Part shown: piece by piece, positions 7,701-55,333 of the stretch
How positions within the stretch are numbered: the stretch's first letter is position 1
Layout: the number at the start of each line of letters is the position of its first letter
Assembly: GCF_036711975.1 (NCBI RefSeq)
Contig: NC_091971.1
Location: 1,309,501 to 1,373,500, forward strand
DNA length: 64,000 nt
Reading direction: 5' to 3'
Origin: Onthophagus taurus
Lineage: Eukaryota > Arthropoda > Insecta > Coleoptera > Scarabaeidae
Position numbers and translations under genes: made by a program
The notes under the pieces: generated by a model
Databases searched by the model: none
Told to the model about the DNA's origin: nothing
The model's input: only the letters and a program-made list of their open reading frames with translations

Positions 7701-8866
7701 ATGATTCCAATTGGATTTCAACAACAAAAAGAAGTGGTAATATTAAATTATTATTTTTTAAAACTTAATTAATTAATTATTTTTTTAAATTAATTTGTAT
7801 ACAGATACATGATGATGAACCTAAAGATCTTTCAAAAACATCTTTATCAAAAAAAATTCCATTAATGAAGTTTTCAAAGTCACCGATTTTAGAGGAATCT
7901 CAAGAAGATAAAAATGATATCAACGGTATAAGAGTCCCTAAAATGAATTCGCACGGAAAATTAACAACATACAAATGCAAACAATGCGATTTTGTCGCAA
8001 CCACTAAAGTTGATTTTTGGCAACATTCAAAAGACAAACATTACCGCCCAGAAAAAACTTTTTATTGCAAATTTTGTCCTTTCGTAACCGAATTAAAACA
8101 TCATTTCGAATACCACGTGAATGGCCACACAGGAACTAAACCCTACAAATGCGAACAATGCGATTATTCTTGCGTAAACAAGTCGATGTTGAACTCACAC
8201 ATGAAATCGCATTCGCAAATTTATCAATATAGATGTAAAGATTGTCTTTATGTTTCGAAATATTGTCATAGTTTAAAAAATCATTTAAGAAAATATAATC
8301 ATCGACCGTCAGTTGTGCTTAACGTTGATGGAACGGAAAATCACCATCAAATTATTGACGTTTATGGAACGAGAAGAGGACCAAGACCTAAATTGAAAAC
8401 GAATTCAGAAAAAAATTATAATTCGATTGAAAATTCGAAGATTCCCAAAATTTGTGAAATTACTCCTCCTCAAATTCCTTTTCCTTTAAATCCGGCTATT
8501 TTAAATCCGTTTATGATGAACGAAATGTTTATTAGGATGGCTTTGCAACTCCAACAACGAACTTTAATTGCTCAAAATAATAATTTAATTATTTCATCGG
8601 CTAACTCAATTCATAGCAATGAAAATACGAGCGACGACGAAGATAGTATTAGTGAGGTTTCCGACGAAGAAGAAAACAAAAATCGATTATTTTCATTAAA
8701 TAATAATCTTCAATGTAAAATTTGCGAAATTAGTTTTAGTAATAAGGAAATTTTTGATATTCATATGAGCAATCATAATCCCGAAAATCCTTTACAATGC
8801 ACTCGATGTGATATAATTTGTGAGAATGGAGTTAATTTTTTTAAACATATTCACGAAAAACACTAA
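7701..8866 (+). CDS. Hunchback-type C2H2 zinc-finger transcription factor, paralog 1 (two exons)
   Basis: Gene model join(7701-7736, 7805-8866), about 365 residues. Exon 1 starts ATGATTCCAATTGG and ends before a GTAATA donor; a 68-bp T-rich intron ends in ATACAG; both exons are phase 0 and the frame is open across the junction. An internal ATG at 7865 would omit exon 1. Four clustered C2H2 fingers lie at about residues 68-178, followed by the hunchback-specific basic stretch [14 protein letters not shown], an acidic linker ([15 protein letters not shown]), and two C-terminal Ikaros-type fingers (about 314-365) that in this family mediate dimerisation. The protein lacks the long N-terminal region of its neighbour. 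Hunchback proteins are nuclear DNA-binding repressors/activators of segmentation and neuroblast timing. It lies 4.3 kb upstream of, and in the same orientation as, the second copy, so a local tandem duplication is likely. Confidence 0.88.
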
Positions 8867-12837: not shown

Positions 12838-13157
12838 AGCCAATATTCCACCCAATTGTCGACGAGGAAAAGGGGCAGTCAATAGGGAGGAAGAGGAAGA
12901 AATCCCCACCACCGCTGACCGTTAGGGATGCTTTTAAGGGTGGGTAGTGGGGGTTCAAATATAGAAGGTAATTTCTAAAGTTCAACACCAAGTCTGTGTT
13001 CTGTGCTCGTCTTGTAAACACGAACTTATAATTATAAAAAGTGAATAATTTTTAGTGAATTTAAGGATAAATTTTTAATAATATATTAAAAGTAAGTAAC
13101 CAAATTTAAAAAATTAATAACAATTTCGGTATTAATTTTTTTCTTTTATTTAAATAG
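12838..13157 (+). promoter_or_regulatory. Proximal promoter, noncoding exon 1 and 5'UTR intron of hunchback
   Basis: A block of higher GC and complexity (12838-12960), including GGGGCAGTCAATAGGGAGG and GGGTGGGTAGTGGGGG, precedes AAATATAG (12956-12963), a possible TATA box, and GTTCAAC around 12980, a possible start region. A donor GTAAGT at 13092 and an acceptor TTTAAATAG ending at 13157 enclose a 66-bp intron that stops 2 nt before the ATG. A leader intron is also a feature of Drosophila hunchback transcripts. Confidence 0.5.
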
Positions 13158-13159
13158 TT

Positions 13160-14578
13160 ATGGCAATCGCACTTCAAAATTATTCGTTACCTTCAATGGT
13201 AACACCACCAAGAACACCTCAATTTCAACTTAAACCTGACTCCTTCGATCAACGCCATCAAGAAACGCCGAGAAACAACGAAATTCATCACCAAAATATT
13301 CAAAATCATAATCATCCGGTGATTAAATCAGAACCAATGGATGATTATGAAAGTATTCCTCACCATCACCAATACAACCCTCACTTTCCAGTTTATAATT
13401 TCCAACAAATCCCAACATCGTTTGGAGAAAATCCATTAGGAAATTTACAAACTCGATTTGGACAACTTTCACCAACAAATTTATCAACGAGCCCACAAAT
13501 TTCAACGCCCCGTCCAGAATTACCTGTCACCCCTGAAAGTCCTTTAAGAACAACCCCTAATTTGCCGTCGGGATGTGAATCGCCAACCAGATTAAGCGAT
13601 ATAGATTTAGTTGGAACGCCAAAAAAGAACTCGTCGAAACCAAAATCTTTTAAATGTCGAATGTGCGAATACGTTGCAACAACAAAAGAAGAAAGTTGGA
13701 TTCATTTAAAAACACATTTAAAACCAGAAAAGATGTTGTGCTGCCCAAGGTGTCCATTTGTAACCGAATATAAACATCATTTAGAATACCATCTTTTAAA
13801 TCACGATGGTTCAAAACCGTTCGTTTGCCCCGAATGTGAATACATGTGCGTTAACAAATCAATGTTGAGATCCCACTTAAAATCACATTCGCAAATTTAT
13901 CAATATAGATGCAAAGATTGTGATTACGTATCAAAATATTGTCATACTTTTAAGATTCATTTAAGAAAGTATCGCCACGAACCTGGACCAGTTTTAAATC
14001 CGGATGGAACTGAAGATATTACGAAAATTATCGATGTTTATGGAAGCCGAAGAGGACCAAGAAAACGTACCGTTTCGATCGATAATTTACAAAATCCTAT
14101 TAATAATTTAAAAACCTTAACTAATCAAAATCTTATCCCAAATCAAAATTTAATTTCGAATCAAAATCTAATTCCAAATCAAGTATCGAATCAAAATCAA
14201 ATTACAAATCAAATTCAAAATTTATCGATTCCTAAACTTCCTCAAATAATTCCCGAAGAAAATGTGGCAACGCAACCACCGTTGGCTAATCCACTTTTTA
14301 ATCCGTTCCTTGTAAATTCGATGGTTTTAGCACAATTTATGAATTTACAAAGATTCGTCGCTGAGTTAAGAAATCGAAACGTTGAATCAAATTCTGAAAG
14401 TGAAAACAACGATGATTATACCTGTAATGTTTGTGGGGTTTCCTTCAAGACTGAAACGTTGTACGGTATTCACATGGAATACCATGATAACGAAAATCCT
14501 TTAAAATGTACGTCTTGTGGAAAAACCAACGAAAACGGGGAGAATTTCTTTATACATTTAACGCGCGAAAGGCATTAA
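13160..14578 (+). CDS. hb: Hunchback zinc-finger transcription factor, paralog 2
   Basis: A 472-residue protein from a single coding exon; the start is the first ATG after a T-rich acceptor at 13157. The N-terminal region is rich in Q, H, N and P, with SP/TP motifs (1-160). Four C2H2 fingers lie at about 164-186, 192-214, 221-243 and 249-273, with [14 protein letters not shown] and [14 protein letters not shown] typical of Hunchback. The basic box [14 protein letters not shown] follows at about 290-303. An NQNL-rich low-complexity run covers 320-353, then a hydrophobic segment [20 protein letters not shown]. Two C-terminal Ikaros-type fingers lie at 420-442 and 448-472. Hunchback binds A/T-rich sites and patterns the insect axis and neuroblast lineages. 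This copy has the fuller N terminus and the 5'UTR intron, so it is the better candidate for the canonical gene. Confidence 0.93.
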
Positions 14579-22814: not shown

Positions 22815-25140
22815 TGTCTGAATGTTTCTAGTTATTGGTCTAATGTTAGTTCTAGTGACAGTGGTAGGTAGCGCATATCTTGCATATTTGTATTAAATTA
22901 AAACTAGAACTAACACAAGACTTAGAACTAGAATCATTCGGGTTTAGCCGTCTTGAGAGACGTGCGGCTAAATCTGAATGTTTCTAGTTCTAGGTCTAGT
23001 GTTAGTTCTAGTTTTACACTAGCACTATCATTAGAACTAACACAAGACCTAGAACTAGAATCATTCGGGTTTAGCCGTCTTGAGAGACGTGCGGCTAAAC
23101 CCGAATGGTTCTAGTTCTTGATCTAGTGTTAATTCTAGTATTCCGATAGCACTATCACTAGAACTAACACAAGACCTAGTACTAGAATCATTCGGGTTTA
23201 GCCATCTTGAGAGACGTGCGGCTAAATCCGAATGTTTCTAGTTCTAGGTCTAGTGTTAGTTCTAGTTTTACATTAGCACTATCACTAGAACTAACACAAG
23301 ACCTAGAACTAGAATCATTCGGGTTTAGCCGTCTTGAGAGACGTGCGGCTAAACCCGAATGGTTCTAGTTCTTGATCTAGTGTTAATTCTAGTATTCCGA
23401 TAGCACTATCACTAGAACTAACACAAGACCTAGAACTAGAATCATTCGGGTTTAGCCGTCTTGAGAGACATGCGGCTAAATCCGAATGTTTCTAGTTCTA
23501 GGTCTAGTGTTAGTTCTAGTTTTACACTAGCACTATCACTAGAACTAACACAAGACCTAGAACTAGAATCATTCGGGTTTAGCCGTCTTGAGAGACGTGC
23601 GGCTAAACCCGAATGGTTTTAGTTCTTAATCTAGTGTTAATTCTAGTATTCCGATAGCACTATCACTAGAACTAACACAAGACCAAGAACTAGAATCATT
23701 CGGGTTTAGTCGTCTTAAGAGACGTGCGGCTAAATCCGATTGTTTCTAGTTCTAAGTCTAGTGTTAGTTCTAGTTTTACACTAGCACTATCACTAGAACT
23801 AACACAAGACCTAGAACTAGAATCATTCGGGTTTAGCCGTCTTGAGAGATGTGCGGCTAAATCCGAATGTTTCTACTTCTAGGTCTAGTGTTAGTTCTAG
23901 TTTTACACTAGCACTATCACTAGAACTAACACAAGACCTAGAACTAGAATCATTCGGGTTTAGCCGTCTTGAGAGACGTGCGGCTAAACCCGAATGGTTC
24001 TAGTTCTTGATCTAGTGTTAATTCTAGTATTCCGATAGCACTATCACTAGAACTAACACAAGACCTAGAACTAGAATCATTCGGGTTTAGCCGTTTTGAG
24101 AGACGTGCGGCTAAACCCGAATGTTTCTAGTTCCAAGTCTAGTGTTAGTTCTAGTATTCCGATAGCACTATTACTAGAACTAACACAAGACTTAGAACTA
24201 GAATCATTCGGGTTTAGCCGTCTTGAGAGACGTGCGGCTAAACCCGAATGGTTCTAGTTCTTGATCTAGTGTTAATTCTAGTATTCCGATAGCACTATTA
24301 CTAGAACTAACACAAGACCTAGAACTAGAATCATTCGGGTTTAGCCGTCTTGAGAGACGTGCGGCTAAACCCGAATGGTTCTAGTTCTTGATCTAGTGTT
24401 AATTCTAGTATTCCGATAGCACTATTACTAGAACTAACACAAGACCTAGAACTAGAATCATTCCGGTTTAGCCGTCTTGAGAGACGTGCGGCTAAACCCG
24501 AATGGTTCTAGTTCTTGATCTAGTGTTAATTCTAGTATTCCGATAGCACTATCACTAGAACTAACACAAGACCTAGAACTAGAATCATTCCGGTTTAGCC
24601 GTCTTGAGAGACGTGCGGCTAAACCCGAATGGTTCTAGTTCTTGATCTAGTGTTACTTCTAGTATTCCGATAGCACTATCACTAGAACTAACACAAGACC
24701 TAGAACTAGAATCATTCGGGTTTAGCCGTCTTGAGAGACGTGCGGCTAAATCCGAATGTTTCTAGTTCTAGGTCTAGTGCTAGTTCTAGTTTTACATTAG
24801 CACTATCACTAGAACTAACACAAGACCTAGAACTAGAATCATTCCGGTTTAGCCGTCTTGAGAGACGTGCGGCTAAACCCGAATGGTTCTAGTTCTTGAT
24901 CTAGTGTTAATTCTAGTATTCCGATAGCACTATCACTAGAACTAACACAAGACCTAGAACTAGAATCCTTCGGGTTTAGCCGTCTTGAGAGACGTGCGGC
25001 TAAACCCGAATGTTTCTAGTTCCAAGTCTAGTGTTAGTTCTAGTTTTAATTGTTATTTAGCGTTAGATTGTAGTATATTTTTATTGAACAAAAAGTAGAA
25101 TTAATACTAGACCTAGAAACAGAAACAGAAACATTCGGTT
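22815..25140. repeat. 127-bp palindromic satellite array (17 units)
   Basis: GGTTTAGCC marks each unit: the first four copies are at 22941, 23068, 23195 and 23322, and the last is at 24973, a span of exactly 16 x 127 bp. Each unit contains two inverted repeats. One is GGTTTAGCCGTCTTGAGAGA, closed by CGTGCGGCTAAACC. The other is a CTAG-rich hairpin (TCTAGTTCTTGATCTAGTGT pairing with the ACACAAGACCTAGAACTAGA side). Units alternate irregularly between two subtypes (TATTCCGATAGC and TTTTACACTAGC centres). Partial or single units are scattered at 0.84, 6.6, 15.4, 33.8, 38.6-39.2, 46.3, 56.2, 57.1, 59.3, 61.4, 62.8 and 63.7 kb. Confidence 0.95.
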
Positions 25141-37340: not shown

Positions 37341-37351
37341 GTTTTATTACT

Positions 37352-38551
37352 GTACAGGATGGTTCAAATTCGATGTCCGAATAGGCTAACTCGGAAACTA
37401 TAAGAGTTAGAAAAAAAGTAGCTTACATGTCATGATCTCGTTTTTCGAGAAACTGCTAATGCCGAAAACCTCATAGCGCTATCGTCTTTTGTTTTTCCCC
37501 TAGAGACCAAAATTGGAAATATCGTAAAACCAGCAAGTGCAATTATCTTCGTTATTATTATAGGTGGAGTATTATAACTAAGACATTATATGGACACTTT
37601 TTTACAGAGAATTGGATGACGTAGTCAAAAAAATTTTTTCGGTTTTAGATTTTGAGATATCATCACAATTTTCGTTTTTTTAAATGGAAACAACCACTGA
37701 TTATTCGCTTATTAAATTCGTTATTTTTTTCTGATTACAAAAATATAGGGTTCGACCGGTCTATTTCTTATTGTTTTAGAATAAAGCCAAAAATAAACTT
37801 TTTTTTAAAATTTCCATCTAGTGTCATCGACGAAATTAAATTTACAGTTTCCTGTAAATTATGGTACTATAACTAAAAATTAAAAAAACAAATTTCTGAT
37901 GTTTGAAACAAATAAATTTGTTGAACTATTTAATTTATATATGTTTTACACAAAAGTTGGAATAGATTGCATTATTTCACATTTTTTATTAATATTTAAT
38001 ATTATTATTAAATGACTTAATAAATTATTGATAGATGGCGCTCATATATTTGAATTCAAAAGAAAAATATATGAGCGCCATCTATCAATAATTTATTAAG
38101 TCATTTAATAATAATATTAAATATTAATAAAAAATGTGAAAGACCTGTCGAACCCTATATTTTTGTAATCAGAAAAAAATAACGAATTTAATAAGCGAAT
38201 AATCAGTGGTTGTTTCCATTTAAAAAAACGAAAATTGTGATGATATCTCAAAATCTAAAACCGAAAAAATTTTTTTGACTACGTCATCCAATTCTCTGTA
38301 AAAAAGTGTCCATATAATGTCTTAGTTATAATACTCCACCTATAATAATAACGAAGATAATTGCACTTGCTGGTTTTACAATATTTCCAATTTTGGCCTC
38401 TAGGGGAAAAACAAAAGACGATAGCGCTATGAGGTTTTCGGCATTAGCAGTTTCTCGAAAAACGAGATCATGACATGTAAGCTACTTTTTTTCTAACTCT
38501 TATAGTTTCCGAGTTAGCCTATTCGGACATCGAATTTGAACCACCCTGTAC
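37352..38551. mobile_element. 1.2-kb foldback palindrome with GTACAGG ends
   Basis: The left end GTACAGGATGGTTCAAATTC and the right end (reverse complement GTACAGGGTGGTTCAAATTC) begin two long, nearly identical inverted arms. The arms meet at a short loop (about 38051-38065) flanked by GATAGATGGCGCTCATATAT. The left arm has about 210 extra bp (roughly 37765-37975) missing from the right, so the outer 410 bp and inner 65 bp of each arm pair. A related single arm lies at 42.55-42.99 kb. No coding capacity. Confidence 0.9.
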
Positions 38552-38584
38552 TTATTATACATTACATTTTTAATTTTTTTTTCT

Positions 38585-39911: not shown

Positions 39912-40943
39912 TTAAATAACAAGAGTTTTATCTCCGTCCCAATCAAATTTTTTTGATTTTCCTTTACGTTCATGTTCCCTCAAAGCACCGGGGGGTGTAT
40001 TTTCACATTGAATGCCAAACTTGTTCTTTGTATTCACTTTAGAAATGGGAATTTTGCTCAAACGATTATTGAGCTTCTTTGGTTTATCAGCCACTTTTAA
40101 TTTAGGCAATTTTTTAGTTTCAACATTAATGTTTCTAGCTGCCAATGGAGTTCTATTTGTTAATCTCAAACCGTTATCTTCTTTTTTATTTACATCTTCA
40201 GTTTCTTCATCTTCATAAATAAGATTCATCAATTTTTTATCGAAATCTTTTACTGTGTTCATCACAACAGTCAAATCTTTTGGTAAAGTTTCAATTTTTG
40301 GAATTAAATCATTTTCAGATTCTTGAAGGTCATTATCAACTATGTCTTTTATTTCTTCTTCTTCCAATTTAATCTCATCAACTTCTTTCTCAATTTCAAT
40401 AATTTCTTTTTCTTGAATACTTACATTAATTTCTTTTACCATGTTTAGCTTTAAAGGTGATTTTTCTTTAAATGCCACGTCAATATCAGTTTCAACATAA
40501 TCTAAATTAGTCTCTAACAGCCCAGATTTCCTTTTGTTTGCCTCAAAACTTTTCTTTTTATCACAAATTTCGTCAAGTTTCTCCTCAGTGTCTTCAACAA
40601 GTATAGGAGTCCTATTAAAATCTACTGTTGGTGATCTTGGATCAACATTTAAATACTTTAATCTCGGAGCATATTGAACAGCGCTTAAAACCCCATCCAA
40701 AGATGATTTATGTTTCAACATAATCGTCTTAAAACATGAAATAAACTTTATTTAATAATTAAACGCAATAATTAATTACTTTACCTCAATTGGAGTTCTA
40801 ACAACATTATTACTTGGAGATCGAGGATCAAGATCGCGAATAAGATTTGTTTTAGGGGTTAAAATTGGAGTTGAAGGTACACTTCCTTCAGGAACGATTT
40901 CTTCCTTGACATCTTCTTGTATTTTACTCGCTTCTGTTCCCAT
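39912..40943 (-). CDS. CDCA3/Tome-1-like mitotic-entry protein, two exons
   Basis: Model complement(join(39912-40727, 40785-40943)), 324 residues. Exon 1 starts MGTEASKIQEDVKEE and holds DLDPRSPSNNVVRTPIE; a GTAAAG donor and a GTTTTAAG acceptor (57-bp intron, phase 0) lead to exon 2 with a second repeat, NVDPRSPTVDFNRTPI. Paired DPRSP...RTP repeats near the N terminus characterise CDCA3 (Trigger of mitotic entry 1), the vertebrate F-box-associated factor that promotes Wee1 degradation and is itself an APC/C target. RTPLAARN (minimal destruction-box form) and CENTPPGALREHE lie near the C terminus, and the middle is a long acidic E/D/K-rich low-complexity region. The ATG at 40721 alone would drop the first repeat, so the two-exon model is preferred. 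Orthology is inferred from the repeats only. Confidence 0.75.
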
Positions 40944-41420
40944 GATTTAATTAAGTTTGACTGAGAATCGTTAGAATGTAATGAGATGATGATAATTTCT
41001 TAGTAAAAATGTAATTGAATGAGTTTTAAGACGTTATTTTGAACGAAATCGAAACTAATTCAGAATTGACGTTTACCAAATACGTTGAATTGAATATAAC
41101 CGTTAAAAAGAATAAACGAAATTAAGTACCAACTTTAGAAGTTAAAAAGAAACTAAAATTATAGAAATGTTTTTTTAGCGAAAACTCAAATTTAATTATT
41201 TAGATTAAGTTGATTTTTTATTAGTGGATATATTGTGTTTTCAATATTTTCAATATTATTACAAAAGCAATTTTCAAATTTGACTTATAATTACCAACTT
41301 GACGTACAAATCAACATAACCTAAAAATGTTTTAATTTTTATTCTGAGTAAGTGTATTACTAAATAATTAAATAAATATTTTTGTATTATTATTTTTAGA
41401 TATGATATAAACCAAAAATA
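40944..41420. promoter_or_regulatory. Divergent intergenic region between CDCA3-like and GT31 genes, with a 5'UTR intron
   Basis: The two genes diverge from this segment of about 480 bp. On the plus strand, a GTAAGT donor at 41348 and a TATTTTTAG acceptor ending at 41399 define a probable 52-bp leader intron just before the GT31 start codon. No TATA box is clear. Confidence 0.45.
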
Positions 41421-42241
41421 ATGGCAAGACACTTAATTAAATTTAGATGGAAAATTATTTCAATATCACTTTTTTTCTTCTTGTTAGGAAACTTGGTATC
41501 ATTATTTTTCATACCAATAAACCAAAAATGCTATGTTAAAACCGATGAAGTCGCTCAAAAAGTGATAAATTTAGCACCACAATCACCTAATTTAGTCATA
41601 CTGATCTTATCAGCACCTAATAATATCTTAAAAAGAAATTCGATAAGAAACTCTTGGTTAAATCTAATTAAAAATATACGTAAAGATCAAGAACACGTTC
41701 TAATTAAGTATTATTTCGTAATTGGTCATTTAAATTTACCAAAAATTGATATAAAGGGCATTCAAAATGAAAATAATATATACAACGACGTTTTAAATTT
41801 GCCGATTCAAGATTCTTATGGAAATCTGACATTGAAACTTATCACATCCTTTGAGTGGTTATTTAAAGACTCTAACATTGATTTTAAATACGTATTAAAA
41901 TGTGATGATGATAGTTTTGTAAGAATAGATCATTTAATTCACGAATTAATTCATTTGGAAGTTATTTATTTAAAATCATCCATTGATGATGTTCGAAAAA
42001 TTAATGAACACACTGCGCCATATATTAGTGTTAATATTCAGTCAAATAATGTTTCTTCACATGGAAATAGAGAATTATATTGGGGATACATGAATGGGGC
42101 AGCTACTGTTTTTAAAAAAGGCAAATGGAAGGAACCTTCATGGATTTCTTGTGATCATTATTTACCATACGCTTTAGGAGGTGGTTATTTAATTTCAAAG
42201 GAGATGGTTGGATTCATTTCGAGGAGTAAATATTATTTAAG
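41421..42241 (+). CDS. B3galt6: Beta-1,3-galactosyltransferase (GT31, B3GALT6-like), 5' coding exon A
   Basis: 273 codons plus two bases, ending in a strong donor AG|GTATGT. Type II Golgi topology: a short basic cytoplasmic tail, then a membrane anchor at about residues 11-31 (IISISLFFFLLGNLVSLFFI). GT31 motifs follow in order: KRNSIRNSWLN, IKYYFVIGH, the DxD motif LKCDDDSFVR, LYWGYMNG and YALGGGYLIS. The last two are specific to B3GALT6, which adds the second galactose of the proteoglycan linker tetrasaccharide. The C-terminal EDV motif and DWS..P..CC tail are absent here and in the following kilobases; the read-through frame ends at 42323 within repeat DNA. The only suitable phase-2 acceptor exon seen is at 47528. 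Either this exon splices there across 5.3 kb, or its own last exon has been lost. Confidence 0.85.
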
Positions 42242-42309
42242 GTATGTTAATTTCTTAATTACATGCAATAAAGTAAAAATAGGAAGTGTACAGAATAAAG
42301 CTAAAAATA

Positions 42310-42990
42310 AAGTTTTTTTTTAGTGTCGTTACAGTTTCCTGTAAATTATGGTACTTTAACTAAAAATTAAAAAAACATATTTCTCCTATCCAAAACAATG
42401 CAATCCATTAAATATTTCCGTATTAACAGTTGGTGTAATAAACATAATTATTTGTTTTTAAATACCAGAAAAATAATACCCCGTAATTTAAATACCGGCC
42501 CGTAATTTACAGGAAACTGTAAATTTCATTTCTTCGACGACACTAGACTTCCGTGGCGTTTAGAAATTTTATAAAAAAAGTTTATTTTTAGATGTATTCT
42601 AAAACAATAAGAAATAAACCTGTCGAACCCTATATTTTTGTAATCAGATGGTTGTTTCCATTTAAAAAGACGAAAATTTTCATATCTCAAAATCTAAAAA
42701 CGAAAAAATTTTTTTGACTTCGTCATCAAATTCTCTGTAAAAAAGTGTCCATATAATGTCTTAATTGTAATACTCCACCTCTAATAATAACCAAGATAAT
42801 TGCATTTGCTGGTTTTACAATATTTTAAATTTTGACCTCTAGGAGAAAAACAAAAGACGATAGCGCTTTGAGGTTTTCGATATTGGAATTTATTTAAAAA
42901 AATAGATCAAGACATGTAAGCTACTTTTTTTCTAACTCTTATAGTTTTCGAGATAGCCTATTCGGACATCGAATTTGAACCACCCTGTAC
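42310..42990. mobile_element. Single arm of the GTACAGGGTGG foldback family
   Basis: The right end GAATTTGAACCACCCTGTAC and the 42560-42980 sequence match the arms of the 37.35-38.55 kb palindrome. The left part contains its own inverted pair, CAGTTTCCTGTAAATTATGG (about 42331) and ATTTACAGGAAACTGTAAAT (about 42503). It is inserted directly downstream of galactosyltransferase exon A. Confidence 0.8.
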
Positions 42991-43106
42991 ATACTCAAAA
43001 GTGTTTTATTTAATTAAGATTTATAAAGTGTAAGAAACTCTCTGCTTAGTATGCTTAGTATTATGTTATTAGAAGTCATTTGTAAATTTTTTTGTCATTT
43101 TTAGAA

Positions 43107-43900
43107 ATGTCCCAAAATAATAGAAAAATAATCAATTTTTTAACAAAATCCAATATTTGGAGAATTTATATTTTAATGGTTGCTATTATTATTATTGGAA
43201 TGTCTTTAATTCCTATTTACATATGGAAAATGACTTACTGTTCAAACACTATTATTGTATTAATTTTAACAGCTCCAGAAAATGAGATTAAAAGGGATGC
43301 GTTAAGAAATACTTACATGGAGATTAAAAAAGTATATCATAAAAAATATGAAAAAATTATCTATTTAAAATATTATTTCATAATTGGCGACGAAAATTTA
43401 CCTAAAAACGTTACAGAAAAATTAATTTTGGAACAATCAACCCAAAAAGATATCATTTTTGTCCCTGTTAAAGATAATTACGATAATTTAACATTAAAAA
43501 TGATGGAAGCTTTTTGTTATTTACATAATCGTTTAAGTTTTTATTTCGATTTTAACTACATTATGAAATTTGATGATGATATTTTTGTTAATGTGGAAGA
43601 ATTAGGACAAGAATTAATTCAAATAGAAGCAAAATATTTAAAATTAAAACTAAATTCGTATAAAAAATTAAATACTAAATATTTAAGTGTTAATCTTCAA
43701 AGTAATGGGAGAAATATCGGAGAAAATTATAAATTATATTGGGGTTTCATGATTGGGAATTCACAAATATATAAAAACGGAAAATATAAGGAATCTAATT
43801 GGATTTTATGTGATTATTATATTCCTTATGCTTTAGGAGGTGGATATATATTATCGAAGGCGATTATTAACTTTTTTGTTAAAAATAAAAATGATTTAAG
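43107..43900 (+). CDS. B3galt6: Beta-1,3-galactosyltransferase (GT31), 5' coding exon B
   Basis: The start is ATG 43107, two bases after the acceptor CATTTTTAG, so an upstream noncoding exon, possibly shared with exon A, is expected. 264 codons plus two bases end at a strong donor AG|GTAAGA. A membrane anchor lies near residues 18-40. GT31 motifs are intact: KRDALRNTYME, LKYYFIIGDENLP, the DxD motif MKFDDDIFVN, LYWGFMIG and YALGGGYILS. As with exon A, the EDV-containing terminal exon is not found before the 47.5-kb locus. Codon use and length match a functional enzyme half, with no stops or frameshifts. A divergent tandem copy of exon A. Confidence 0.82.
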
Positions 43901-43973
43901 GTAAGAATAAAACATATTTATAAGTTTCTATTTATCAATTTTGGGGATATTCTCTTGTACAATTTGGTATATG

Positions 43974-46300
43974 TAATAATAATAATAATAGTACTTTATT
44001 GACCGCAACAACCAACATAAAAAAGTTAAATAACAATATAAAGAAAAAAAATATATATAAATGAAAAATTCATTCTATATGTGAAACTAATTACAATCTG
44101 CGACCAATAGGCGGAGTCCAGATTGGCATCCATCGCGATGGAAGCCATCTGTTCAACTCAACCTAGAGTTGAGAATGACTAATAATTACATATTCAATTG
44201 TTTTCCGCAATTAAATTAATCAATTCAAATGATTCCCTATATAACCAATAAATAGATAACAACCCAATGTCAGAGCACTGAGGCAGAATAAGGATTATGT
44301 TGACCTATCTGAAGCCGAAACAAGGTGTTACGCAAGTTAACTTTAAAAACGGATAGACTTTTATTTTTAAATTCAGGAGGACAGGAATTATACTCCTTGG
44401 CCACATTATATGAAAAAGAGCGCCTAAAAAGAGCTTTCCTGTGAGCAGGAACGGCGATAGTATTTTTGTGTCTAAGATTCAAGTTATGAACATCGGTCCT
44501 ATAGGTGATTTTATTATATAAGTAAGGTGGAGTCCCCGTAGTAATTAACTTGTGCACAAGACACAAGAACTGATGTTTGAATTTGTTTCTGATATTTAAC
44601 CATTTTGCAGTAACCAATGTGTGACTAATATTTTCACGCTTACGAACGCCATACATAAAACGAAGACAGCTATTTTGAACCCTTTGAATACGATGAAGTT
44701 CATACCCAGTTAAACATGGACAATACATGGCAGCACAATGCACAAAATTTGACAGAACAAGTGTTTCGCACAAACGTTTCTTTGTAATTATATTTAAAAT
44801 GTGTCGGTGTTGATAGAGGCAACTAAGAACACCATATACCTTTTTCACGCAAGCAGTGACATGACTGCTGAATCGCAGATTGCTGTCGACAAGCACACCC
44901 AGATTTTTTGACTTAGGGTACACTACCAGCCTCTCTCCACCCAAAAATATACCGACACTATCAGAGTCCAAGTTACCAAAGATGACTACCTTAGATTTAG
45001 TGGCATTGAGAGTTAGTGCCATCTTGTGCGAGCAATCTAAAATAGCGTTCAGATCTGCATTTATTTTTGAGCAAGCAGAAGCGAGGTGTTCCTTTGGAAA
45101 GGTTATGTAAATTTGGGTATCATCTGCGGACATGTGTATCGACGAATATTGAATGCACTTAGGCAACTGGGATGTATACAAGGAAAACAATAGAGGAGCC
45201 AGAATAGACCCCTGTGGCACTCCCACTCTCGCAGGCAGTGATGATGAAGATACATTGTTCAATTTTACTATCTGAGCACGATTGGATAGGAAACTTTCCA
45301 AAAGCAAAACCGCTGAGTCGGACAGACCAACATAGCGCAGAAGAGCTAAAAGCATGGAATGGTTAACCTTATCAAAGGCCTTACTGTAGTCCAGCAGTAC
45401 AAGTATCCCACATAGACCGCCATCACGAGCTCTAATAATATCGTCTGTTACCTTTAATAGAGCCGTTGTACAGCTATGGTTAGGTCGAAAACCAGACTGA
45501 GAGGTGGGCAAGATGTTATGATCACTAATATATTTACGCAATTGGACCTCCATGCACCTTTCAAGGACTTTTGAGATAACTGGCAGGATAGTAATTGGAC
45601 GCAGGTCCGCCAAACCTGCTGGATTTGGTTTTTTAGGCAACGGCATTACCAAAGCAATCTTCCAGGCTTCCGGGAAAATAGACTGTTCAAGACAGGTATT
45701 TATAATATGTACAATGTAGGGCAATATTTCAGGGAGACACATTCTTATAAATGTGATGTTCAATTCGTCTGCAACTTGGATAACAGCCGCCAACTACTCT
45801 TTACATCACTAGTCACAAATGTACTATTTAAGAAAGATTTCTTTTCTCGTCGTATTGCAGAAGTCGTTAAATTGCGTAAGGACTTGTAGTAGTCGAAGTG
45901 CGCTATTAATTTAGTTCTTTTATATCGAGATAAGGCTCTATCCCTCAGCGACATCATTAGTTTTATTGTGTCCGTTAACCATGGTGCAAATGGCCTATGT
46001 AATCTGAGTGACCGAACCGGTGCATGAAAATCTAGAAGTGCCAAAAGATGAGTGTTTAAAAAATGTACTTTCTGATTAACATCAGTTATATGATAGATTG
46101 CATAGAGTGGTAACCGGGATAAATCACCCTTCAGACTATAGGCATCTATGTTTGATATAGGTCTACAAAATTTGGTAATCCGAATGGGCCTTGAATCAGA
46201 AATAGTAATGTCACATTAAACAAGATTGTGGTCTGACATATGCATCGGTATGCTTGCCTGGTTAATACAACCGTCCGGGTAATTCAATAATCCGAATATT
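43974..46300 (-). mobile_element. 5'-truncated jockey-superfamily LINE in the GT31 cluster
   Basis: Minus strand. From the 5' side: the end of an AP-type endonuclease (IPMHMSDHNLV, followed by one stop), an endonuclease-RT linker (FHAPVRSLRLHRPFAPWLTD), and, after a frameshift near 45770, a 507-codon RT frame. The RT has SGFRPNHSC, LDYSKAFDKVNH, VPQGSILAPLLFSL, MSADDTQIYI (Tyr of the usual YADD replaced by Ser) and the C-terminal domain. The 3' end is a short TAA/ATT repeat near 43976-43990. The 5' side abuts palindromic satellite at about 46285. It lies in what would be the intron between GT31 exons B and C, in the opposite orientation. Confidence 0.9.
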
Positions 46301-46440
46301 TCTAGTTCTCGGTCTAGTGTTAGTTCTAATATTGCACTAGCACTATCACTAGAACTAGTCGTCTTGAGAAACGTGCGGCTAAATCCGAATGTTTCTAGTT
46401 TTCGGTCTAGTGTTAGTTTTAGTGATAGTGCTAGTGTAAA
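46285..46440. repeat. Palindromic satellite, about one unit
   Basis: CCGAATATTTCTAGTTCTCG and GTCTTGAGAAACGTGCGGCT identify the 127-bp family. It lies immediately at the 5' truncation point of the LINE at 43974-46300. Confidence 0.8.
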
Positions 46441-46692
46441 ACATAACAACCAAGTCTGAAATTCTGCCAAAACTTGCAATGCAACATTTGACACAATTGT
46501 ACAAACTGATACTATTGCCAGCGAAATCATAAACGTCCATAAATTATGAAACGTATCCTTAAAAGAAAAGTCAATTACTTTTTGCTGTGTCAAGATCATG
46601 AAAGTTACAAATTTCATTATTTATATATAAATATGTGTCAAAGTCATTTTTTTAATTTTACACGAATTGATTATTTAATGTTTTAATTAAAA

Positions 46693-47459
46693 ATGCCCAA
46701 AATTAACTCCAGTGATGAACGTTCACAAAGCCGTAAATTGAAAACTTCAAAACAAATTCTAGCGGTGTCGATTTTTCTAATCCTAACGTTTAGTTTTTCC
46801 GTTCTCTTCGTGGAATATCGCACGCCAAAAACTGGGTTGTACAATCACATAAATTCGTATTGGATGAAAAGATCCGATCAAATCGATTTGGCCGTTCTGT
46901 TAAAATCGGAAATAAATCATACCAAACAACGCGATGTTATAAGAAAAACTTGGGCCAAAATAAATGGAAATTTATCACTCAAAGTGATGTATTTTTTCGT
47001 GATTGGTTATAAAAACGTTTCGGAGTCGGATTGGAACGAATTACAAGAAGAAAACAAAAAATTCAAAGATGTTTTAACGTTTTTATCGAACGATGATTTT
47101 TCAAGAATTTTTTGGGATTTTATTTGGTATTACGATGTTGGTTTTGTAAAACACGGATTTAAATATTTATTGAAATGCGATGATAGTTGTTATGTTAGAT
47201 TAAAAGCATTAACTAGAGTTTTAAAAGGATTTGAAACGAATTATTTAGAAGGAAATTTAGATAAAATTAACGAAAGTAATTCTGTTTTTGAATCGGTCGA
47301 AATTAATAATGTTAAAAACGATAATTACGGACAATTAAAAAAAGATTTATATTGGGGATATTTCAATAATTTTGAAATGATTTCTTACGCTTTTAATGGG
47401 GGTTACGTTTTATCTACACAAATTGTGGGATTTTTGGCAAATAATAAAAATTATTTGAG
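46693..47459 (+). CDS. B3galt6: GT31 5' coding exon C, with damaged catalytic motifs
   Basis: 255 codons plus two bases from ATG 46693, ending at a weak donor AG|GTACCT. A membrane anchor lies near residues 23-41 (ILAVSIFLILTFSFSVLFVE). GT31 similarity is clear (TKQRDVIRKTWAKI, KVMYFFVIGYKNV, LYWGYF, NGGYVLS). However, the DxD motif reads LKCDDSCYVR instead of CDDDSF, losing the metal-binding third Asp. About 17 residues around the conserved WISCDHYLPYALGGGY block are also missing (YWGYFNNFEMISYAFNGGYV). It is nearest to the intact terminal exon at 47528 and phase-compatible with it. The product would probably be catalytically inactive, or the exon may be decaying while its terminal exon is used by exons A and B. 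Confidence 0.78.
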
Positions 47460-47527
47460 GTACCTATTCTATTAAGTCAAAGCAGCGTCTATTTCGGTGT
47501 ATAAATAAATTGTATTTTTTTTTATAG

Positions 47528-47804
47528 ATATTACCACTCTGAAGATGTAAGTGTTGGGGCTTGGTTAGCTCCAGTTAATAACATCGTAAGGATACACGAT
47601 CGGCGTTTCGATACAGAATACGTAAGCAGAGGGTGCCAAAATTATTATTTAATTAGACACAATGTTTCGCCGGATGAAATGATGGAAATGTATAAAAATT
47701 TGAAAGAAAAACGACAACTTTGCACGAAAGAACAACGTAACGTTAAAGAATATCTTTATGATTGGTCTGTAGCACCGACTAAATGTTGTAATCGGGTTTT
47801 ATAA
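47528..47804 (+). CDS. B3galt6: GT31 terminal exon carrying the EDV motif and CC tail
   Basis: The acceptor TTTTTTATAG ends at 47527, and the exon starts in phase 2 (completing an Arg codon) then reads YYHSEDVSVGAWLAPVNNIV, FDTEYVSRGCQNYYLI and ends EYLYDWSVAPTKCCNRVL. EDVS is the conserved acidic motif of GT31 enzymes; DWS..P.KCC is the B3GALT6-type C terminus. All three upstream coding exons (A, B, C) end in phase 2 after a Leu-Arg context and can join here, giving predicted proteins of about 365, 356 and 347 residues. AATAAA follows at about 47851. A partial duplicate lies at 52783-52923. Confidence 0.85.
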
Positions 47805-49028
47805 AAAAATTGTTGTATTTATTTTTATTTGTATATTATTTACTTTATAATAAAACTTAGATTATACACATTTTTGTGTCTTCAAGGACATTGAGACAGT
47901 GGCAGAGAGGGAAGGTAGAATAGGGAGCTGAAGGAAAAGTAGGCTGAGAAGATTAAGGAGTTGAAAGAGGAAAAGGAGGTGTGGTGATACTTAAAGAGGA
48001 TGAGGAAGGGAAGAGAGGAAATCAGCAGAGATATACAAATGACTGAATGGAGAACCTACTTCATGGGCTTGTTGGGAGGGGTGGAAGAGAGAAGACTGGG
48101 AGAGGGAGAGCGAGGGGTGCAAGGAGGAGAAGAGATAACAATGGAAGAAATGGAAGCAGTGTTGATGGCGCCAGGAGAGGATGAGATCCAGAATGTGGCA
48201 TGGTTGGAGGCGACGGAGACAGTGAAGAAGAACTTATAGAAGGTAATAAACGACGACGTAGGGATAGGGGAGAGGTTTCCGGACAGGTGGAGGATGGCGA
48301 TAATATGCCCACTGTATTAAAAGGGTAGTGAGCAATTATAGAGAGATCATCCTGTTGGACACAACTTTCAAAATTTATGCAAAGATACTGCTGGGGAGGT
48401 TGGAAGAGGAAATGTAGAGGGGGGAATTGGTGCCGAATGTGCAGGCGGAATTCAGGAAGGGAAGGGGGGAAATTGACAATATATACATACTGAAATACCT
48501 GGTAGATAGGGAGTTGCACAAGAAGGGAGGAAAGTTGTATGGATTGTTTATTGCCCTGAAGTCTGCATTCGATAACGTGGATAGAGAGAAGTTGTGGGAG
48601 AAAATGAGGAGGAGAGATATCACAGAACAACTGATAGAGAGGGTGAAAGAGATGTACAGGAAAACGATGGCCAAGGTTAAATTGGGGGAAGAGTTAAGCG
48701 AAATATCCTGAACGACAAAGGGATTGAGACAGGGGTGCCCGCTTAGTCCCACACTATTTGCAATATATACGGCGGACCTGGAAAGGAGACTTGTGAAGGA
48801 GCAAATGGGTGGGGTGGTGATAGGAGGAACAAAGGTGTACGCCTTGGCGTATGCGGACGATTTGGTGGTCGTGGCTAGAGAGGCGGTGGAGATGATGAGG
48901 TCCCTGGAAAGATATTTTAAGGCGAAGGGGTTGGAGGTAAATGTCGAGAAAACAAAGATAATAAACTTCTGCAAAACCCAGCTGGGTAGCCGTGGTGTTA
49001 AGCACTCGACTGGCCAGTCTGGGGGTTA

Positions 49029-50388: not shown

Positions 50389-51506
50389 GGGGGTCACAGG
50401 TTCGATTCCCGCCGTGGCACTGTTTACGGAATAAAAAATTGTGTTTATGTGGTGATGGTCTATCCTTTGTTTCTTCTGTGTTGTCCATCCCCTTTCTGTA
50501 AGGGAATCATATCCTGAAATATTTATAAATATACGCAGTAACTGGGCAATAAGGACTAAAGTTTCCAAAGCCCAAATCCATCCTTCCTAGTTTATCAAAT
50601 CCAATCCAATCCAACTTCTGCAAAGGGGGGGAAGAAAGAAGGAGGAATGGAGGTAGCAGGGAAGAGAGATAGAGCAAGTGAAAGAGTACACGAACCTGGG
50701 ATATGGGTTCGCGGAAAATAATACGGTAGGGGCGCACGTGAGGGCGATGGCAAAAAGAGCGAAAAGAACTCTTGGAAGGGACGTGGGAAAAAGAAAAGTT
50801 ATGTTTGATGGCTTGGTAAGGAGCACAATGATGTACGGCGCAGAAGTATGGGGATGAAGAGAACAAGGATTGCTGGAGGGTATACAAACACGGTATTGGA
50901 GATGGGTATTAGGGTTGGCAAGGGAGACTCCAGGGTATGTAGGGAGAGAGGAGGTTAAGGTGGATACAGTAAGGGTGGAGGCTGGGAGAAGAGCAGTGAA
51001 GTATGAGGAAATGATAGACGCAAGATCCTGGGAGAGTGCTGCAGGGAAATTAAGGAGAGGAGGCTGATCTATGGATAAAGAGACAGGGAAGAATATTATA
51101 GAAGGATATTCACTAACTGGGATCGAAAACAGAAGAGCGGAAAGAGGTGAAACTGAGAGATAAGGACAGGGACATACAGTGGCAGGAAAGAAGGTCACAG
51201 ATACGAGAAGGGAGATATAATGAAAGATATGGGGTGATAGTGACAGTGAAACTGCTAAACTAATTCTTGATGGAAGGGGATGATGAAGGGAAGAGATTGG
51301 TGACCAAATTACGCTGTGGCAATGAGTGGAGTGTGGTATAGGCTATGTGGAGAGGATTAGGAGACGCTGGAACATATGTTGAGAGGGTGTAGTAAGCTAA
51401 GGGAGGAGGCAAAGGACAGGAAGCAGATTTTGGGAGAGGGGGCGAGGGCAAAAGATGGATGAGGGAGGTGAAAGGACCCGAAAGTTTCTAGCATTAGTTC
51501 TAATTT

Positions 51507-52993
51507 TTGATTTCTTATGATTTTAATGGGGGTTACGTTTAATCAGACACAATATTTTGGGGATAGATTCAGGGGTTCCGCAGGGAAGCAATCTGGGACC
51601 TTTATTGTTTCTATTATTCATAAATAATTTACCTTTGCTAATTAATCCATCTAGATGCTTACTCTTTGCGGACGATCTGAAAATATTCACATCTGTTCGT
51701 GATATGTGACTGCCAGTCCTTACAGTCTGATCTGGATAATGTATGCGATTGGTGTCGGCTGAACAAACTTCACTTTAACGTGGCCAAATGTGAATCAATG
51801 ACATATTTTTTGGGGAGGAAGCCGATAGAATTTGTGTACAGAATAGATAATATAAATTTGAAATCAGTTGTCAGAAAGAGGGACCTAGGTATTATTTTTA
51901 CCAACAATTTATGCTTTGCCGAGCACGTGAAAACCATAACTTCCGCAGCACTTCGACTCTTAGGATTTGTTATAAGAAATGCTTATAGTTTTTCAAATGT
52001 GGAGACGTTAAAATTATTATTCAATTCATTGGTGCGATCTAAATTAGAATACGCGGTAATTGTATGGGATCCTGGATCAGACCTTTATTCAAACTTAATC
52101 GAAATTATTCAAAATAAGTTTATTCGGTATACTTATTACAAACAATTTAATGCCTTTATCGGGTTCAGATCGTACGAATTTGCGCGTACATTATTTGATA
52201 TAACTAAGTTATCTATTAGAAGGAAAATCATATCGCTTTGTTTTCTATGTAAAATATTAAACAATAAAATAGATGCACCTTTAATCTTGGAAAAGATTGG
52301 TTTTTACGTGCCGGCATATTATGGACGATTGAAAAATCTATTTTACATTCCCCGCTTTACCACTGAACTCAGAAGAAATTCTCCTTTTATTAGAATTCTC
52401 TTGCTACATAACAAACTATCTATGGCTTCCTTCATCCCACTATTTGGCGTTGATGTAAAAACAGTAAAAAAGAATTTGATGTCTGTGATGAACGTTGCAA
52501 CCGCCCAGTGCAGTGGCTGATCTTATAGAATCTTATTATAGTTCATAATTCTTCGCGCATTCTGTTCCATTCCTCTGTTCTGTTTTACGTTATTGTTTTA
52601 TTTTGTATCATTTTTTTTCTTTTTACTTATTTGCTTTTTTATTGTTTGCTTACAAATCGAGTACGGCTTAGTTTAATATTTAATTTAGTTTAATATTTAG
52701 TTCAATTTTGTTTAATTATTATGTAGTAATTCCGAAATCTGTAATTAGGGGAAACCCTGTTTATTTTGGAAATAAATAAATAAATATTTCACCGAATGAA
52801 ATGATGGAAATATATAAAAATTGAAAAAAAAAAGCGACAACTTTGCACGAAAGAACATAACGTTAAAGAATATCTTTATGATTGGTCTGTAGCACCGACT
52901 AAATGTTGTAATCGGGTTTTATAAAAAAATTGCTGTAATTATTTTTATTTATATATTATTTACTTTATAATAAAACTTAGATTATACACATTT
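51507..52993 (+). pseudogene. Remnant of a fourth GT31 copy, interrupted by a LINE
   Basis: 51507-51540 (TTTCTTATGATTTTAATGGG, then GGTTACGTTT) matches the end of exon C (47385-47409). It jumps directly to AATCAGACACAATATTT, matching terminal-exon positions 47649-47667. After the LINE insertion, CACCGAATGAAATGATGGAA (52790 on) resumes the terminal exon through the stop equivalent and 3' flank (ATTATACACATTTTTATGTC), which runs into the PAXBP1 gene. Most of the coding sequence is deleted, so it is inactive. Confidence 0.8.
51558..52782 (+). mobile_element. 5'-truncated jockey-like LINE in the GT31 remnant
   Basis: Flanked by the 7-bp duplication AATATTT (51551-51557 and 52783-52789). The RT starts in domain 4 (DSGVPQGSNLGPLLFLLFIN), has LLFADDLKIF (catalytic FADD), a frame break near 51705, and then a 273-codon frame with CDWCRLNKLHFNVAKCESM, RKRDLGIIFTN, LEYAVIVWDPG and the C-terminal region. 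The 3' end is an AAATA repeat. Recent enough that the target duplication is perfect. Confidence 0.88.
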
Positions 52994-55333
52994 TTATGTC
53001 TTTAATGTTTTTAAAATATTAGCGAGAGTTTCAATACTTTCTAAATGTAACGGATTATTTTTATCCAACTGTTGAGCGAAATTCGTGATACAACTACTAA
53101 ACATTTGTAATTGCTGAGTATCGTTTTGTAACCAAACTCTGGGTAAAATCAAACTAATTAACCCAATCTTAGCGACGGCATCAGTTAACGGACAGATTTT
53201 AACCGCAGAAAGCAAATAGCGATTTAACAAAGAATTTAAAGCAATATCTTTTATAATGTTATCATTTATAATTCCCTGCCAACTCGTTATATTTCTTAAC
53301 AATTTTAATCCGCTCGCAAATTGTCTTTGAAAGAACACATTTTTAGACTCAACCAATTTCGGAACAATCGGAATAAAAACGTCGTTCTCCAACGAACTCT
53401 TCAATTTATGTAAAATTGCATTGAAAAGATTCAAAAGTGATTTACTTTCAGGGCCTAACGTTGGAAAGCGACGAATATAACGACTTACAACGCTTAATAA
53501 TCGTAAAGTTTGTGTACTGGATAGTGGATCCCAACATTTATCAACTAAGATTGTTAATTTTGGGATAACAACTTTTTCAACAACGCTTGGAAGTAAAGTT
53601 ATATCAGGATCTCGAGATAAACTGGTTTCAGTTTCGCCTTCGTGAAGACCGTACATTGCTAAAATTCGATACCAATCTAATTTATCAATATCTCCCGTTT
53701 CAGTTAAAGGATCCCAAAAAATCATGTTTAACCGAACTAAAGGGCTTACAACTTTTGGCAAACAAACCGTTGCGTAAGCTTCAGTGTAAGCGCTAACATC
53801 GGTTTCCCTCCATTGTTCAAATTTAATTAAAATATTTGAAACGGACGAAAAGTCTTCAACTACATCATCAAAAACGGTTTGAGCTTCAACCTCAATTTGT
53901 TCTCGTTCTTTAATTAACGTTAAAATATCTTGTTGCGAAATCTCATCGTCGCTAGACATTCCTTCAACGTGTTTTATTTCTTCGTTAGCTTCTCGACATC
54001 GCCTTCTCCTTGTTCTTCGACCTTCTCGCTCAACAGCTCTTCGATTTTTTTCTTCATCTTCACTTTTTCGAACGATATTTCTACTTGGCATATTTGTGAC
54101 TTCTTCAGCTTGATCACGAACGTCTTGCCGCCGTCTTTCAATTAACCAGTCTGATTTTTTAGCCATAACATCGATAGCTCTTTGTTCCAAAGAATGAATC
54201 ACCTCAATTTTCTCATCTAAACATTCAACTAAATCAGTTATATATCCCCTAAGTTCCTGATAAAATCGAAAACGACTTGCAGCTTTTGGAGCTTCAAGTT
54301 TTAACGCTTCGATTTCATGTGCTGTTGATTCAATCTCATCACGGATTTCTTGTAGCTTCTTAATATTGTTGTTTCGTGATTTAATAACATTTTCGTGGTG
54401 CTCGGTGAGTTTTTCGAGAATTGCTTGAGGTGTGCGAGGTATGTCGGGGTTAATTTTTGGGATATTTTCTTGTACGATTTGAGGTGGATTATTTAATTGG
54501 TACTCGTTATACAATAATTCTTGATTTAAAGCAGCTGCTGTAACCCCTTTTCTTATTTGTTGATCCTCCCACTCATCTGCTTCTTCTAAATCGGAAGTTT
54601 GAGCTTCAAAAAATTGTTCTCTTCGCCTTTCTTGGTCTCGAATAACAGGATTCGCTCCCATATCTATTCTTTCTTCGTCACTTCCATCGTGTTCATCTTC
54701 TCGTAGTAATCGCCCTTTATCTTCCATTTCCTCCTCTTCAAATGGGATGTGGTCACCTAATTCTCGAGCACGTTGACGACGTTTTCTTGCTGCGTGAATC
54801 ATCGCTGCATCGGGAATAGCTCCAGATTCTAAAACGTGTTTAAAATTGTCAGGTTTTGAAAATTTATAACTTGGTTTTCCTGGATTATCATCATCTTCGG
54901 AACTTAAATCATCTTTTCCGGCACATAAAGCATCTCTTCCACTTAAAATAGGTATTTGAGGTGGAGATGGGGGTTTATGGCTTGAATTTACCACCAAAAT
55001 TAAATCATCTGTTACAATTTCGGTTGGTTTATACTCTTTAAATTTTTCTTTAACCTCCTCTTTTTCTTTTAAATCCTTTTTACGGCGTTCTTTTTCGTAC
55101 ATTTTCATCAATTTCTTACTATGATTTGATTTTTTTACTTGGAAAACTTCACCTTCCTCTTCAGTTTCAAAACTAAGAAGGGATTTCGGTTTGTGTTTAG
55201 CCGTTTTCTCTTTCGATTTGGATTCCTTTTCTTTTTTTGGGACGTCCACTTCCATTTCTTCGTCATCTTCATCGTCTTTTTCAGAAAATACTCTTCTTTG
55301 AATCGACTTTTTTGGTTTTCTAAAAAGGGACAT
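52994..55333 (-). CDS. PAXBP1: PAXBP1/GCFC (GC-rich sequence DNA-binding factor) homolog
   Basis: A 779-residue single-exon protein. The N terminus MSLFRKPKKSIQRRVFSEKD matches the conserved start of PAXBP1/GCFC proteins, followed by acidic and lysine-rich low complexity, EHVLESG-like FKHVLESGAIPDAAMIHAAR and KRRQRARELGDHIPFEE. A coiled coil covers roughly residues 300-390 (LEKLTEHHENVIKSRNNNIK onward). The GCFC/TTF11-type helical domain follows from about 490 (FEQWRETDVSAYTEAYATVC; PLVRLNMIFWDPL) to the C terminus. Human PAXBP1 is somewhat longer, about 900 residues. Family members associate with the spliceosome disassembly/intron-lariat machinery, and PAXBP1 links PAX3/7 to histone methylation. 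The start is the first ATG of the frame, with a conserved N terminus. The stop lies within 75 bp of the GT31 remnant on the other strand. Confidence 0.9.
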   Translation of the reverse strand: MSLFRKPKKSIQRRVFSEKDDEDDEEMEVDVPKKEKESKSKEKTAKHKPKSLLSFETEEEGEVFQVKKSNHSKKLMKMYEKERRKKDLKEKEEVKEKFKEYKPTEIVTDDLILVVNSSHKPPSPPQIPILSGRDALCAGKDDLSSEDDDNPGKPSYKFSKPDNFKHVLESGAIPDAAMIHAARKRRQRARELGDHIPFEEEEMEDKGRLLREDEHDGSDEERIDMGANPVIRDQERRREQFFEAQTSDLEEADEWEDQQIRKGVTAAALNQELLYNEYQLNNPPQIVQENIPKINPDIPRTPQAILEKLTEHHENVIKSRNNNIKKLQEIRDEIESTAHEIEALKLEAPKAASRFRFYQELRGYITDLVECLDEKIEVIHSLEQRAIDVMAKKSDWLIERRRQDVRDQAEEVTNMPSRNIVRKSEDEEKNRRAVEREGRRTRRRRCREANEEIKHVEGMSSDDEISQQDILTLIKEREQIEVEAQTVFDDVVEDFSSVSNILIKFEQWRETDVSAYTEAYATVCLPKVVSPLVRLNMIFWDPLTETGDIDKLDWYRILAMYGLHEGETETSLSRDPDITLLPSVVEKVVIPKLTILVDKCWDPLSSTQTLRLLSVVSRYIRRFPTLGPESKSLLNLFNAILHKLKSSLENDVFIPIVPKLVESKNVFFQRQFASGLKLLRNITSWQGIINDNIIKDIALNSLLNRYLLSAVKICPLTDAVAKIGLISLILPRVWLQNDTQQLQMFSSCITNFAQQLDKNNPLHLESIETLANILKTLKT

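What the first reader, a model, noticed from the sequence alone, without database searches (positions are those of the whole stretch)
41421..47804. Three GT31 coding exons, one terminal exon: possible alternative-exon galactosyltransferase gene
Exons A (41421-42241), B (43107-43900) and C (46693-47459) each encode the anchor and N-terminal two-thirds of a B3GALT6-like enzyme and stop at phase-2 donors after Leu-Arg. Only one exon (47528-47804) carries the EDV motif and the conserved CC tail. No terminal exon was found between A and B or between B and C. A and B have intact catalytic motifs and good donors (GTATGT, GTAAGA). C, the copy next to the terminal exon, has lost the third Asp of DDD, lacks about 17 conserved residues and has a weak donor (GTACCT). 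Yet the terminal exon is well preserved. The simplest explanation is that A and B splice onto the distant shared exon, giving one gene with alternative 5' catalytic exons. The alternative is that A and B are decaying halves that lost their ends to transposon insertion.
Basis: partly seen in the sequence, partly recalled or inferred. Interest (0 to 1): 0.8.

Follow-up and report, generated by a model that had tools for sequence, protein, structure and literature searches.

The report
Sugar-transferase gene with swappable front exons
An animal genome seems to make a key proteoglycan-building enzyme by joining one of several duplicated front halves to a single shared back half, because only one intact back half was found in the whole genome and the front half beside it looks broken.

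Summary
The three B3GALT6-like coding exons (A 41421-42241, B 43107-43900, C 46693-47459) and one intact terminal exon T (47528-47804) are real. Their donors share phase and position, and each joins T in register. A, B and C are the only B3GALT6-like front exons found; of 12 other GT31 places, 11 fit human B3GALT5 better and one matches neither. C departs from 23 residues that A, B and human share (9 of them deleted), A from 4. C lost the metal-binding Asp; T carries the catalytic-base motif. Other linker-pathway families are present. No transcripts were available. The layout resembles UGT1A or Gr39a, here in a GT31 enzyme: a new variant of a known kind.

The parts
41421..42241 (+). Exon A: start codon, hydrophobic anchor, DDD and GGGY motifs; ends phase 2 at GTATGT
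   Evidence: 69 of 177 aligned residues identical to human B3GALT6
43107..43900 (+). Exon B: same layout, DDD and GGGY intact; ends phase 2 at GTAAGA
   Evidence: 57 of 177 aligned residues identical to human
46693..47459 (+). Exon C: open frame, but DDD changed to DDS, W..CD.YL stretch lost, donor GTACCT
   Evidence: 23 departures (14 changes, 9 deleted positions) from residues shared by A, B and human; 48 of 152 aligned residues identical to human
47528..47804 (+). Shared terminal exon T: SEDV (catalytic base), RH (candidate metal His), DWS..P..CC tail, stop
   Evidence: sole intact copy found in the genome, 52% identical to human over 88 columns
47460..47527 (+). 68-nt intron between C and T with T's acceptor (TTTTTTTTTATAG)
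42242..47527 (+). Proposed 5286-nt A-to-T intron
   Evidence: inference
43901..47527 (+). Proposed 3627-nt B-to-T intron
   Evidence: inference
42292..42993 (.). Old dispersed foldback-type repeat filling most of the A-B spacer; lacks left-hand sequence that other copies have
   Evidence: 175 matches with 40 of 1363 candidates scored; terminal branch 0.054
43974..46280 (-). Young non-LTR retrotransposon (RVT_1 on the minus strand) filling most of the B-C spacer
   Evidence: (first eight partner copies listed 95-99% identical; 40 of 2091 candidates scored)
41348..41399 (+). Putative 52-nt 5'UTR intron before A (GTAAGT ... TTTTTAG)
   Evidence: consensus match only
43030..43104 (+). Putative 75-nt 5'UTR intron before B (GTAAGA ... 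CATTTTTAG)
   Evidence: consensus match only
47849..47854 (+). AATAAA signal 45 nt after the T stop codon
   Evidence: read
51501..51561 (+). Decayed copy D: scrap of exon C (83% to 47367-47429)
52783..53005 (+). Decayed copy D: 3' half of T plus UTR (93% to 47661-47885); frame broken, no SEDV half

Best explanation
This is the only B3GALT6 (galactosyltransferase II) locus found in the genome, organised as a complex gene. Paralogous 5' coding exons each encode the membrane anchor, the nucleotide-sugar site (DxD) and the glycine-rich loop. They are spliced alternatively, at one conserved phase-2 junction, to a single 3' exon T that encodes the catalytic base (SEDV), the candidate metal-binding His and the Cys-Cys tail. 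A+T, and probably B+T, are the active enzymes. C+T is at best a catalytically dead product. C's weak donor and the lack of a visible acceptor before C would let A or B transcripts skip C. Shown: the exons, the junction register, the single intact T, and the degeneration of C. Inferred: use of the A-T and B-T junctions, separate promoters, and enzyme activity.
For: T's only other genome match is a broken copy. Only A, B and C are B3GALT6-like among the GT31 places found. T keeps 52% identity to human, while C carries 23 unique departures against 4 in A and 10 in B, including the third Asp of DDD. In the GT31 enzyme B3GNT2 that Asp binds the metal, and the xED Asp is the base (PMC7948508, passages). 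A, B and C donors are at one homologous place and phase and continue in register into T. Long-term purifying selection between A and B: omega 0.018 against 1, 2dlnL 70.1, synonymous changes saturated. Xylo_C and Glyco_transf_43 families are present.
Against: No transcript evidence. The A-B repeat lacks left-hand sequence and the B-C LINE has no detectable target-site duplication, so deletions that removed private terminal exons are possible. The LINE is young, and at 0.02 neutral changes per site A and B would still be open in 28.5% and 26.8% of runs, so recent orphaning cannot be excluded. Counting aligned residues only, C (48 of 152) is about as human-like as B (57 of 177). AATAAA occurs at base 26 of the A intron and base 6 of the B intron, which could end transcripts early, though such AT-rich DNA holds it often by chance. 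If B's putative upstream acceptor is real, A could splice into B out of frame.
Confidence: 0.74

Rival explanations
1. A works with T, but B is a recently orphaned exon. B lost a private terminal exon, perhaps with the young LINE insertion, and is now decaying.
For: The first eight LINE partner copies listed are 95-99% identical, so the insertion is recent. No target-site duplication was found, so a deletion is possible. B has more unique departures than A (10 against 4). A weak protein-level terminal-exon-like stretch lies at 46498-46626.
Against: That stretch is not supported at DNA level (105 of 300 shuffles) or by the human query (96 of 500), and it holds two stop codons. If it were a real remnant, B would have stayed open long after losing its end. 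B keeps DDD, GGGY and a donor close to consensus.
Confidence: 0.15
2. C+T is the only working gene, and A and B are recent pseudogene halves. Loss or change of B3GALT6 activity is tolerated through a shorter linker.
For: C+T is a complete open reading frame with an ordinary 68-nt intron. C shows past constraint too (2dlnL 39.9 against A). b3galt6 knock-out zebrafish still make a small amount of proteoglycan with a trisaccharide linkage (PMC7758351, abstract).
Against: C lost the metal Asp, a Gly of the glycine-rich loop and the W..CD.YL stretch, while A kept all of them. Neutral simulation gives a 4.2% (A) and 3.0% (B) chance of staying open at 0.05 changes per site, and 0.3% and 0.2% at 0.1 (600 runs each, substitutions only).
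Confidence: 0.08
3. A and B encode short truncated proteins that end in the intron, with a role that does not need T.
For: Intronic AATAAA signals shortly after both donors.
Against: Without T there is no catalytic base. Phase-2 donors are kept at the homologous place.
Confidence: 0.03

Closest known systems
Human B3GALT6 (GT31, PDB 9sp7)
   Same: Best solved match for A, B, C and T; same motifs in the same order
   Different: Here the active site is split over alternative front exons and one shared back exon. That human B3GALT6 is a single-exon gene is recalled, not checked.
Drosophila Gr39a and beetle gustatory-receptor loci
   Same: Several large alternative 5' exons spliced to small shared 3' exons, with exon duplications, losses and pseudogenised exons (PMC2204066, abstract; PMC6720082, passages)
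   Different: Those are receptors; this is a glycosyltransferase of a core pathway, with only two or three front exons
Mammalian UGT1A locus
   Same: Unique first exons with their own promoters joined to common exons, giving a set of sugar transferases (PMC9209448, passages)
   Different: Unrelated enzyme family (recalled); four common exons instead of one

Membership tests
B3GALT6 (GT31) | Galactosyl_T domain, best solved match B3GALT6 | tested here: met
   (T alone has no Pfam match)
B3GALT6 (GT31) | DDD metal motif and GGGY loop in the front exon | tested here: met
   Met in A and B; not met in C (DDS, NGGY)
B3GALT6 (GT31) | xED catalytic base and Cys-Cys tail in the back exon | tested here: met
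   T only
B3GALT6 (GT31) | Galactosyltransferase II activity | not testable with these tools
   needs an enzyme assay
Alternative-first-exon locus (UGT1A / Gr39a type) | Paralogous front exons in tandem with same-phase donors at a homologous position | tested here: met
Alternative-first-exon locus (UGT1A / Gr39a type) | One shared intact 3' exon and no private ones | tested here: met
   weak protein-level hint in 46498-46626 reported; past private exons not excluded
Alternative-first-exon locus (UGT1A / Gr39a type) | Transcripts joining each front exon to the shared exon | not testable with these tools
   no RNA data held
Alternative-first-exon locus (UGT1A / Gr39a type) | Own promoter for each front exon | tested here: inconclusive
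   Only putative 5'UTR introns before A and B, and no CAG or TAG acceptor candidate in the scanned stretch before C

The most novel reading that the evidence does not exclude
One core-pathway glycosyltransferase is assembled from interchangeable donor-binding halves (A or B) and a shared catalytic-base half, while a third, metal-site-dead half (C) with a weak donor makes a pseudoenzyme that competes with or chaperones the active forms. Splicing would then set the balance of active and inactive galactosyltransferase II.
Probability: 0.2. Interest if true: 0.68.

Novelty: new variant of a known kind. Interest (0 to 1): 0.52.

Why it matters
B3GALT6 makes the third sugar of the linker that carries glycosaminoglycan chains (PMC7758351, abstract), and here this would be the only locus found for that step. 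If alternative front exons are used, one animal makes two active galactosyltransferase II enzymes, plus perhaps a dead one, from one gene. That gives a natural test of how donor-site and base-site halves coevolve and whether isoforms differ in tissue or substrate. It also warns that automated annotation might report the dead C+T model as the B3GALT6 of this species.

Tried and rejected
Hidden private terminal exons: tblastn of T over the window and shuffle tests found no convincing one apart from the dead copy D. The tests covered 46443-46692 and 42994-43106 at DNA level and those two plus 46281-46692, 43901-43973 and 42242-42291 at protein level. With T, 42994-43106 was reached by 41 of 500 shuffles. 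A protein-level hint at 46498-46626 was kept as weak evidence.

Dating loss by transposon age: the A-B repeat is old (terminal branch 0.054, low branch supports, 12 copies) and the LINE is young. Neither dates loss of a terminal exon, because the repeat lacks left-hand sequence that L039, L040 and L041 share and the LINE has no visible target-site duplication. I did not use these ages as proof.

Synonymous divergence values (30 to 147) are saturated and were not read as times. Relatives in viral contigs: none confirmed. Paper searches: B3GALT6 with insect and exon listed 2 papers, neither on such a locus by title and abstract start; B3GALT6 with beetle and splice listed 8 of 2,160 papers that hold two of the terms, none of the 8 holding B3GALT6. 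That covers only this open-access library.
Full report
Observation. Exons A, B and C are open reading frames of 273, 264 and 255 codons up to their donors. All three match the Galactosyl_T family, with human B3GALT6 as best solved relative. The terminal exon T encodes 91 residues. It has no Pfam match on its own but matches human B3GALT6, and nothing else in the PDB up to E 1, at E 1.4e-26. The donors lie at one homologous position and phase. Joining any of them to T gives L-R-Y-Y-H-S-E-D-V, in register with the human protein.

A search of the window with T finds a second, broken copy. Window 52783-53005 is 93% identical to 47661-47885 (210 of 226 aligned columns), and 51501-51561 is a scrap of exon C. 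Between them lies a stretch with a 279-codon open frame that has no Pfam match; by eye I take it for a retroelement. No one frame of the copy reads as T throughout: T's frame meets a stop, and the tail of T continues in another frame. Nothing aligning to the SEDV half was found there. It is a dead duplicate of the C+T unit, next to a convergent gene with a GCFC domain.

Genome test. The window's assembly has 290.8 Mb in 33 contigs. T has two matches in it: itself and the dead copy (4 of 4 candidates scored). Searching with A gives 14 matches at E up to 10. A, B and C score 613, 183 and 70 bits, and the other 11 score 45 bits or less. The family search gives 15 places, 12 of them outside the locus. 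Against human fragments, open frames at 11 of these 12 places score higher with B3GALT5 than with B3GALT6, and the twelfth (L031) matches neither at E 0.01 or better; L028 and L030 gave the same best frame. A, B and C score higher with B3GALT6 (116 against 53 bits, 96 against 46, 47 against 34). The two human fragments differ in length (178 and 115 residues), so this is a ranking, not a tree. The locus is thus the only B3GALT6 found. The xylosyltransferase domain Xylo_C is present at one place. The glucuronosyltransferase family PF03360 is present as two adjoining pieces, whose matches run through stop codons that may be introns; I take it for GlcAT-I, which acts after B3GALT6 (pathway order recalled). 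PF02709 gave 12 places that I did not resolve to B4GALT7.

Which exons can work. In human B3GNT2, a GT31 enzyme, the last Asp of DxD binds the metal, the xED Asp is the proposed base, and a His also binds the metal (PMC7948508, passages). By alignment the DxD and glycine-rich loop lie in the front exons, and the xED and a candidate His lie in T. A and B keep DDD and GGGY. C has DDS and NGGY and an 18-column gap over the W..CD.YL motif. C departs from 23 residues that A, B and human share (14 changes and 9 deleted positions), B from 10 and A from 4. Aligned identity to human is 69 of 177 for A, 57 of 177 for B and 48 of 152 for C, so outside its gaps C is about as human-like as B. BLAST gives 33%, 27% and 23% with gaps, and 52% for T over 88 columns. 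So the only intact T stands beside the front exon whose active site is broken, and the intact front exons have no back exon of their own.

Constraint. Pairwise codon models reject neutral evolution for A-B, A-C and B-C (2dlnL 70.1, 39.9, 24.4), with synonymous sites saturated. This shows long past constraint, not present constraint, and it holds for C too. In neutral simulations without indels (600 runs per value), A stays open in 28.5%, 4.2% and 0.3% of runs at 0.02, 0.05 and 0.1 changes per site, and B in 26.8%, 3.0% and 0.2%.

Spacers. The A-B spacer holds 50 non-repeat bases, an old dispersed repeat (42292-42993) and 113 further bases. The B-C spacer holds 73 bases, a young antisense non-LTR element (43974-46280) and 412 bases that include a common short repeat. 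No terminal exon is detectable at DNA level in the two flanks tested (46443-46692 and 42994-43106). A protein-level hint in 46498-46626 (5 of 500 shuffles; 5 of 808 window segments) is not supported by the human query (96 of 500) or at DNA level. The A-B repeat lacks left-hand sequence that three other copies share, and the LINE shows no target-site duplication, so deletions are possible and I do not claim clean insertions.

Mechanism. Most likely A and B are alternative front exons spliced to T. Putative small 5'UTR introns precede A (41348-41399) and B (43030-43104). B's acceptor-like site has 12 of 14 pyrimidines; sites with 11 or more occur in 93 of 3831 comparable AT-rich 25-nt segments. 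A's site has 10 and does not reach that mark. No CAG or TAG candidate was found in the stretch scanned before C. C therefore cannot easily be included as an internal exon, and its donor lacks the usual +4 and +5 bases (consensus recalled), so A and B transcripts could skip it. Weak points are the AATAAA signals just inside the A and B introns (42267-42272 and 43906-43911, read) and a possible out-of-frame A-to-B splice.

Comparison. The layout matches Gr39a (PMC2204066, abstract), beetle gustatory receptors that share a C-terminal exon with unique N-terminal exons (PMC6720082, passages) and UGT1A (PMC9209448, passages). I found no report of it for B3GALT6 in the listings. It is a new variant of a known kind.

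Noticed in passing
7769-8866 and 13154-14578: Two C2H2 zinc-finger open frames, 41% identical over 381 columns, that look like two hunchback paralogues (name recalled, not tested).
   Followed up: partly
22945-25044: Array of a unit repeating about every 127 bases (spacing of matches), related to the short repeat at 46289-46442 and to scattered copies on both strands.
   Followed up: no
37351-38554: Foldback element with long inverted arms (at least 350 bases) that are almost identical to each other (branches 0.007 and 0.003).
   Followed up: partly
39912-40751: Minus-strand open frame of 279 codons without a Pfam match, head-to-head with exon A about 670 bases away; a shared two-way promoter is possible.
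   Followed up: no
46498-46626: Weak protein-level similarity to T residues 36-77 with two internal stops; probably chance.
   Followed up: yes
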